Assembly: GCA_018263395.1 (NCBI GenBank)
Contig: JAANXF010000005.1
Span: forward strand, 1 to 59,780
Source of the DNA: Methanonatronarchaeales archaeon
Lineage (GTDB): Archaea; Halobacteriota; Methanonatronarchaeia; JAANXF01
Length of the DNA: 59,780 nt
Direction of reading: 5' to 3'
Positions 47,938 to 48,146 of this stretch are shown here, one piece after another. The notes beneath the pieces are model-generated. The model was not told the DNA's origin, made no database searches, and saw only the letters and a program-made list of their open reading frames with translations. Every line of letters starts with the position of its first letter. The first letter of the stretch is position 1. The translations under genes were made by a program, and so were the position numbers.

Positions 47938-48146
47938 TGCGGAGGGAGGGATTTGAACCCCCGGACCCCTGCGGGACAGGATCTTAAGTCCTGCGCCTTT
48001 GGCCCCCGAGCGTAACCCGCTCGACCTGTTGTGGCACTGCTTCGCAATGCCACTTCCTATCTACCGTTAATCCAGCAGTGGTGCCGTTAGGCACCACGCG
48101 GGTCGAGCGAGCGCGGTCGGGTTTGGCCGGACTTGGCTACCTCCGC
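47938..48146 (-). tRNA. tRNA-Leu (UAA) interrupted by a 124-nt D-loop intron
   Basis: On the minus strand the acceptor arms GCGGAGG and CCTCCGC are followed by A. The anticodon stem CAGGA/TCCTG holds loop CTTAAGA (anticodon TAA). There is a long variable arm (CCCGCAGGGGT), as in leucine tRNAs, and a T-arm GGGGG-TTCAAAT-CCCTC. The D-arm GCCAAGTCCGGCCAA...AGGC is split by 124 bases. Removal gives an 85-nt RNA with GGCCAAAGGC in the D-loop, the normal archaeal tRNA-Leu form. No intron is seen in the anticodon loop. Confidence 0.88.
47999..48122 (-). other. 124-nt intron in the D-loop of tRNA-Leu with a bulge-helix-bulge motif
   Basis: GGCC before the 5' site pairs with GGCC before the 3' site to make a 4-bp helix. 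Each side has a three-base bulge AAA on opposite strands. CCCGA/TCGGG continues the helix into the intron, with CGCTCGACC/GGTCGAGCG further in. Cutting each bulge as AA^A yields the exact D-loop. The intron also contains two hairpins at 48031-48053 and 48078-48097. Confidence 0.8.

What the first reader, a model, noticed from the sequence alone, without database searches (positions are those of the whole stretch)
47938..48146. A 124-nt intron in the D-loop of tRNA-Leu(UAA), with a clean bulge-helix-bulge
Seen: the tRNA is complete except for 124 extra bases between GGCCAA and AGGC of the D-loop. GGCC repeats at both edges pair to a 4-bp helix flanked by AAA bulges on opposite strands, and a longer stem closes the intron. 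Known: archaeal tRNA introns are cut at bulge-helix-bulge motifs and mostly lie after position 37; D-loop introns are known mainly from certain Crenarchaeota. In a euryarchaeon of this type such a site would be unusual. The intron also contains two hairpins like the repeat hairpins found elsewhere in the window.
Basis: partly seen in the sequence, partly recalled or inferred. Interest (0 to 1): 0.85.

Follow-up and report, generated by a model that had tools for sequence, protein, structure and literature searches.

The report
Leucine tRNA with a D-loop intron
A leucine transfer-RNA gene of a methanogen-related archaeon is interrupted by a 124-base intron at an unusual place, the D-loop; the same interruption sits in most or all leucine tRNA genes of five scattered archaeal families whose tRNA-cutting enzyme is of the kind so far reported to handle introns only at the usual place.

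Summary
Confirmed and extended. The gene at 48146..47938 (minus strand) is tRNA-Leu(UAA) with a 124-nt intron (48122..47999) in the D-loop. [quoted passage not shown] It is not a pseudogene: it is the only UAA gene in the assembly, and Leu(UAG) and Leu(CAA) of the same genome carry unrelated introns at the same position. Among 394 genomes of the phylum, 13 (five families) carry such introns; 46 distinct ones were analysed, and two families have them in all five Leu isoacceptors. In silico removal gives an 85-nt tRNA-Leu with the expected anticodon in 46 of 46. The exon-intron central helix pairs fully in 41 of 46 (shuffle mean 1.2). All 13 genomes encode a two-repeat alpha'2-type splicing endonuclease with intact Tyr-His-Lys triad and no crenarchaeal-type specificity loop. 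Reviews tie introns outside 37/38 to (alpha-beta)2, epsilon2 or loop-bearing enzymes. Closest euryarchaeal precedent: Methanopyrus tRNA-Glu. Same-class relatives have uninterrupted Leu genes, and the carriers are not one clade, so gain, loss or spread recurred. New variant of a known kind; splicing itself remains untested.

The parts
48123..48146 (-). 5' exon of tRNA-Leu(UAA): acceptor 5' strand, D-stem 5' strand, D-loop up to A21 (GCGGAGGTAGCCAAGTCCGGCCAA)
   Evidence: sequence, fold and comparison with uninterrupted relatives
47999..48122 (-). 124-nt D-loop intron (between tRNA positions 21 and 22; boundary placed by the BHB rule within a 7-nt direct repeat GGCCAAA)
47938..47998 (-). 3' exon: A22, D-stem 3' strand, UAA anticodon arm, long variable arm, T arm, acceptor 3' strand and discriminator A
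   Evidence: 94% identical to Methanohalarchaeum tRNA-Leu(UAA) over 67 nt
48125..48128 (-). 5' half of the BHB central helix (G18 G19 C20 C20a)
48001..48004 (-). 3' half of the BHB central helix (intron GGCC)
48122..48124 (-). 5' bulge AAA, predicted cut AA^A
47998..48000 (-). 3' bulge AAA, predicted cut AA^A
48117..48121 (-). inner helix 5' strand CCCGA, pairing with 48009..48005
48078..48097 (-). intron hairpin 1 (GTGGTGCC TAAC GGCACCAC)
48031..48053 (-). intron hairpin 2 (GTGGCATTGCGAAGCAGTGCCAC)

Best explanation
A functional tRNA-Leu(UAA) gene with an archaeal BHB intron in the D-loop (position 21/22). The transcript folds so that exon bases G18-G19-C20-C20a pair with the intron's 3' GGCC, and 3-nt AAA bulges on opposite strands present both cut sites. 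The genome's homodimeric alpha'2 tRNA-splicing endonuclease cuts in each bulge (AA^A), RtcB joins the exons, and an 85-nt tRNA results. Because the local motif is a near-canonical BHB, an enzyme that is strict about motif but not about place could accept it. The site is shared with Leu(UAG) and Leu(CAA) here and with most or all Leu tRNAs of four other families. It is therefore a recurrent intron site of the tRNA-Leu D-loop, not a one-off. Shown in silico: anatomy, conservation of pairing, endonuclease type, RtcB gene. Inferred: cutting, ligation, function.
For: Fold with BHB, z -6.2. No other UAA gene in the assembly. Same-site introns in Leu(UAG) (45 nt) and Leu(CAA) (78 nt) of the same genome. 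13 of 394 phylum genomes positive, 53 pattern hits. 46 of 46 in silico products recognised as 85-nt Leu tRNAs with the expected anticodon, against 4 of 46 unspliced with any tRNA call. Central helix fully paired at the exact offset in 41 of 46; shuffles mean 1.2, largest 6. U20 pairs with A or G in the intron, C20 with G in 11 of 14. Endonuclease alpha'2, nearest A. fulgidus 1r0v/2gjw, E 2e-41, triad YHK intact. RtcB present, E 1e-171.
Against: No RNA evidence. The outer helix is only 2 bp in this gene. Introns of Leu(UAG) and Leu(CAA) have a 3-bp central helix plus a G-A mismatch and do not fold to a BHB as minimum free energy structures, so they are relaxed motifs that alpha'2 enzymes are said to cut poorly. 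In f13 the inner helix is often imperfect. The assembly is 78% complete.
Confidence: 0.93

Rival explanations
1. Pseudogene: an insertion has destroyed a tRNA-Leu(UAA) gene and the codon is read by another tRNA.
For: Assembly 78% complete, so another UAA gene could be missing. 3'-end copies of the tRNA lie just downstream.
Against: Exons intact and the product a normal tRNA. Same position interrupted in three Leu genes here and 43 more distinct introns elsewhere, with helix pairing kept. No other UAA gene found.
Confidence: 0.03
2. The insert stays in the tRNA as an expanded D-loop (no splicing).
For: No RNA data; M. kandleri tRNA-Glu reads that still hold the D-loop intron are common, suggesting late removal there (PMC3695527).
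Against: Insert lengths vary from 28 to 241 nt among orthologues while the exons do not change; such D-loops would be expected to block the D-loop/T-loop elbow contact. Bulge and helix conservation is explained by cutting.
Confidence: 0.02
3. The real gene is the uninterrupted 86-nt tRNA that ARAGORN calls at 47937..48022, and everything upstream is leader.
For: ARAGORN; weak Rfam match to the same 3' part (25.5 bits).
Against: Its acceptor stem has mismatches and no U8, while the 24-nt exon further upstream completes a perfect acceptor stem and D arm. The other Leu genes of the genome show the same split arrangement without such a fallback.
Confidence: 0.02
4. Origin variant, compatible with the best explanation: the Leu D-loop introns are mobile and spread from gene to gene and between lineages, for example by reverse splicing into the GGYYAA^A site, rather than by descent.
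For: Introns of f13, f17 and f28 share sequence across different isoacceptors (f17 Leu-CAG vs f13 Leu-UAA, 44 nt nearly identical, z about 15), and carriers are not one clade (p-AU 1.4e-5).
Against: Introns of this genome resemble neither each other nor any other. Ancestral presence with repeated loss, or gene conversion among Leu genes, also fits.
Confidence: 0.35

Closest known systems
Canonical archaeal BHB introns at tRNA position 37/38
   Same: BHB with 4-bp helix and 3-nt bulges, EndA and RtcB encoded; this genome also has several such introns, e.g. the tRNA at 17876-17977
   Different: Lies in the D-loop (21/22), not after the anticodon; the anticodon loop of this gene is uninterrupted
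Non-canonical-position tRNA introns of Thermoproteales and other Crenarchaeota, Nanoarchaeota, ARMAN (PMC4090602, PMC6379350)
   Same: D-loop position range (20/21, 22/23), cutting by EndA at BHB or relaxed BHB
   Different: Those lineages have (alpha-beta)2 or epsilon2 enzymes, most with a specificity loop; here alpha'2 without loop
D-loop introns of Methanopyrus kandleri tRNA-Glu (PMC3695527)
   Same: Euryarchaeal D-loop intron predicted to be cut by EndA
   Different: Only tRNA-Glu, as a second intron beside a canonical one, with an (alpha-beta)2 enzyme; here Leu family, single intron, alpha'2
Korarchaeum cryptofilum non-canonical tRNA introns (PMC4033280)
   Same: Two-repeat homodimeric endonuclease with introns outside 37/38
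   Different: Its enzyme is reported to carry the specific loop; ours lacks it
Permuted tRNA-Leu(UAA) of Cyanidioschyzon merolae, broken in the D arm (PMC4090602)
   Same: Leu(UAA) interrupted in the D arm with a BHB-like junction
   Different: Halves in swapped order in a red alga; here collinear exons
Group I intron of cyanobacterial and plastid tRNA-Leu(UAA)
   Same: tRNA-Leu(UAA) host gene
   Different: Self-splicing ribozyme in the anticodon arm; no group I match here

Membership tests
Archaeal BHB tRNA intron | 4-bp central helix between exon and intron flanked by 3-nt bulges on opposite strands | tested here: met
   GGCC:GGCC with AAA/AAA; 41 of 46 introns at this site fully paired
Archaeal BHB tRNA intron | Removal yields a normal tRNA | tested here: met
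   85-nt tRNA-Leu(taa) by ARAGORN; 46 of 46 at this site
Archaeal BHB tRNA intron | Genome encodes splicing endonuclease and RtcB ligase | tested here: met
   Two PF01974 repeats in one 362-aa open frame, RtcB E 1e-171
Archaeal BHB tRNA intron | Excision observed in RNA | not testable with these tools
   no transcriptome available
Non-canonical-position tRNA introns with loop-bearing (broad-specificity) EndA | Intron outside 37/38 | tested here: met
   between D-loop positions 21 and 22
Non-canonical-position tRNA introns with loop-bearing (broad-specificity) EndA | EndA of (alpha-beta)2 or epsilon2 type, or bearing CSL/ASL loop | tested here: not met
   alpha'2; no insertion where the CSL sits in chimera 3p1y, in this and all 12 other carriers
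Methanopyrus-type tRNA-Glu D-loop intron | Second intron beside a canonical 37/38 intron | tested here: not met
   anticodon loop CTTAAGA uninterrupted
Group I intron of tRNA-Leu(UAA) | Group I catalytic core | tested here: not met
   no Rfam group I match in the window or in the locus with the permissive search
Split or permuted tRNA gene | Halves on separate loci or in reversed order | tested here: not met
   exons collinear and 124 nt apart

The most novel reading that the evidence does not exclude
A Leu-specific, D-loop-homing family of BHB introns has spread repeatedly, within genomes among all five Leu isoacceptors and between distant archaeal families, and is removed by loop-less alpha'2 endonucleases. 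That would break the rule that enzymes of this type serve only position 37/38, and give a case of tRNA-intron transposition outside Thermoproteales.
Probability: 0.35. Interest if true: 0.75.

Novelty: new variant of a known kind. Interest (0 to 1): 0.58.

Why it matters
Reviews state that alpha4 and alpha'2 endonucleases of Euryarchaeota process only canonical BHB introns, normally at 37/38, and that introns elsewhere co-evolved with loop-bearing enzymes (PMC4090602, PMC4033280, PMC12397907). Here 13 genomes with loop-less alpha'2 enzymes carry D-loop introns in essential Leu tRNAs, in up to all five isoacceptors. Either motif rather than position is what these enzymes demand, or their specificity is wider than thought; both can be tested with one purified enzyme. 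The repeated occupation of one site in one tRNA family also makes intron gain or transposition directly studiable. Practically, bacterial-mode ARAGORN and Rfam at its cut-off miss or misplace these genes, so Leu tRNAs may be reported missing in such genomes.

Tried and rejected
Hairpin similarity between the intron and the rest of the window: none. Known RNA families inside this and the long introns: none above cut-off. A CRISPR-repeat-like hit at 18.6 bits (gathering 39) was taken as chance. Single origin of all carriers as one clade: rejected on an EF-2 tree (p-AU 1.4e-5); without this genome it is borderline (p 0.046). A key paper on the M. kandleri enzyme was not held.

Full report
Observation. 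On the minus strand, 48146..47938, the window holds tRNA-Leu(UAA) split in the D-loop by 124 nt (48122..47999). The exons give a perfect acceptor stem (GCGGAGG/CCTCCGC), GCC/GGC D-stem, CAGGA-CTTAAGA-TCCTG anticodon arm, a long variable arm and a T arm. The outer helix is only two pairs (CC:GG). GGCCAAA is directly repeated at the two intron edges, so the cut is placed by the BHB rule; the product is the same either way. ARAGORN's uninterrupted call (47937..48022) uses the intron's 3' end as a mock 5' half and fails on the acceptor stem. Rfam scores the unspliced gene below its cut-off.

Where it comes from. The window is contig C18 of a 1.17-Mb, 78%-complete assembly. A T-loop pattern search, Rfam hits and ARAGORN with introns give about 42 tRNA genes, about 13 with introns. 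That is more than the ~8% quoted for Euryarchaeota (PMC4090602).

Not a pseudogene, not a one-off. A search with the joined exons finds no other UAA gene. Leu(UAG) (C15, 45-nt intron) and Leu(CAA) (C2, 78 nt) are interrupted at the same D-loop position; Leu(CAG) is not; Leu(GAG) was not found. The two same-class relatives have uninterrupted Leu genes for UAA, UAG and GAG, and for CAA in one of them, with no pattern hit.

Survey. Pattern GGTNRCCRAGNCNGGYYAANH (Leu 5' exon not followed by the normal AGG) was run over 394 genomes of the phylum: 13 positive, 53 hits in total, 2-5 per positive genome, in families f1 (this one), f8, f13, f17 and f28. The reversed-pattern control gave scattered single hits only. 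The pattern needs exact conserved bases, so absence elsewhere is not proven. In one search's nearest genomes, however, the Leu loci that ARAGORN could not read as intact all lay in f13 and f17. 46 distinct introns were parsed; across f13 and across f17 all five anticodons occur.

BHB conservation. The exon bases G18 G19 Y20 Y20a pair fully with the intron 4-mer at the predicted place in 41 of 46 introns; every other offset from -8 to +8 gives 0 to 15; shuffled introns give 1.2 on average, at most 6. Position 20 is T paired with A (18) or G (14), or C paired with G (11) and facing A (3, unpaired). All 46 products are exactly 85 nt and ARAGORN names all of them tRNA-Leu with the expected anticodon; unspliced, only 4 give any tRNA. 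Intron lengths are 28-241 nt. Related genomes share introns, so the 46 are not independent.

The enzyme. This genome has one splicing endonuclease frame with two PF01974 repeats, nearest to the Archaeoglobus fulgidus alpha'2 enzyme (1r0v, 2gjw; E 2e-41). The chimera 3p1y, A. fulgidus with the crenarchaeal loop, shows where that loop sits, between FYG and VTLSL. At that place our protein and those of all 12 other carriers have no insertion; the triad equivalent to Y246/H257/K287, and R280, is intact in all (the A. fulgidus row there was typed, its part from residue 18 on agreeing). RtcB is present. Reviews restrict alpha4/alpha'2 to canonical BHB introns, in Euryarchaeota at 37/38 (PMC4090602, PMC4033280, PMC6379350, PMC12397907), and call Korarchaeum, whose enzyme has the loop, the only alpha2 archaeon with non-canonical introns (PMC4033280). 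My reading is that the motif here is close to canonical although its place is not. The UAG and CAA introns of this genome, with a 3-bp helix plus G-A, and several f13 introns are looser and are the real challenge to the rule.

Evolution. On an EF-2 tree this genome sits with its class mates and their neighbours, f8 with f17, f28 with a genome that gave no pattern hit, f13 alone; holding all carriers together is rejected (p-AU 1.4e-5). Holding the other four families together is borderline (0.046). Introns of f13, f17 and f28 share sequence across isoacceptors: f17 Leu(CAG) and f13 Leu(UAA) agree over 44 nt, z about 15. The three introns of this genome resemble neither each other nor the rest. 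So the site is used repeatedly; transposition, gene conversion and ancestral presence with loss remain open.

What is shown and what is inferred. Shown: structure, conservation, gene content. Inferred: that the RNA is cut and joined, that alpha'2 does it, and any selective reason. No RNA family was found in the introns.

D-loop introns are known in a euryarchaeon, in both tRNA-Glu of Methanopyrus kandleri, with RNA reads (PMC3695527). The hairpins of the intron are not copies of hairpins elsewhere in the window.

Noticed in passing
47748-47935, and G000:C20:38358-38490 (locus L086): Two perfect 94-nt tandem copies directly downstream of tRNA-Leu(UAA), each ending in a copy of its last ~20 nt. 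tRNA-Ser(GCU) on contig C20 has two 61-nt tandem copies of the same design, sharing the core CACTCCTCCCGCCAGCAG..CTGCCGGTCAG, found exactly nowhere else in the genome. Perhaps integration scars or slippage; reminiscent of the repeats after E. coli tyrT (from memory).
   Followed up: partly
17876-17977: tRNA with a canonical anticodon-loop intron. ARAGORN with introns calls it Ser(CGA), but the short variable loop and CTCATAA loop fit elongator tRNA-Met(CAU) better.
   Followed up: partly
L072 (G000:C5:42250-42750): tRNA-Trp with a 185-nt intron that contains a GATGATGA box and CTGA motifs, like the box C/D RNA in haloarchaeal tRNA-Trp introns.
   Followed up: no
G000:C17:7378-11121 and G001:C67:27426-31151: EF-2 open frame of about 1250 aa with the EF-2 match split near residue 30-60, which looks like an intein shared by two class members.
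   Followed up: no
47027-47628: Two small overlapping genes on the minus strand next to the tRNA, 70 aa and 130 aa, looking like a VapBC-type antitoxin and PIN-domain toxin pair (from sequence only).
   Followed up: no
G000:C5:56-7846 and G000:C13:3945-12162: Same tRNA set, Gly(GCC), Val(TAC), Val(GAC), in mirror order with an identical 1249-nt spacing between the two Val genes on both contigs: a duplicated region or redundant contigs in the assembly.
   Followed up: no
L121 (f17) and L100 (f13): Near-identical 44-nt intron sequence in tRNA-Leu genes of different anticodon (CAG, UAA) and different families.
   Followed up: partly
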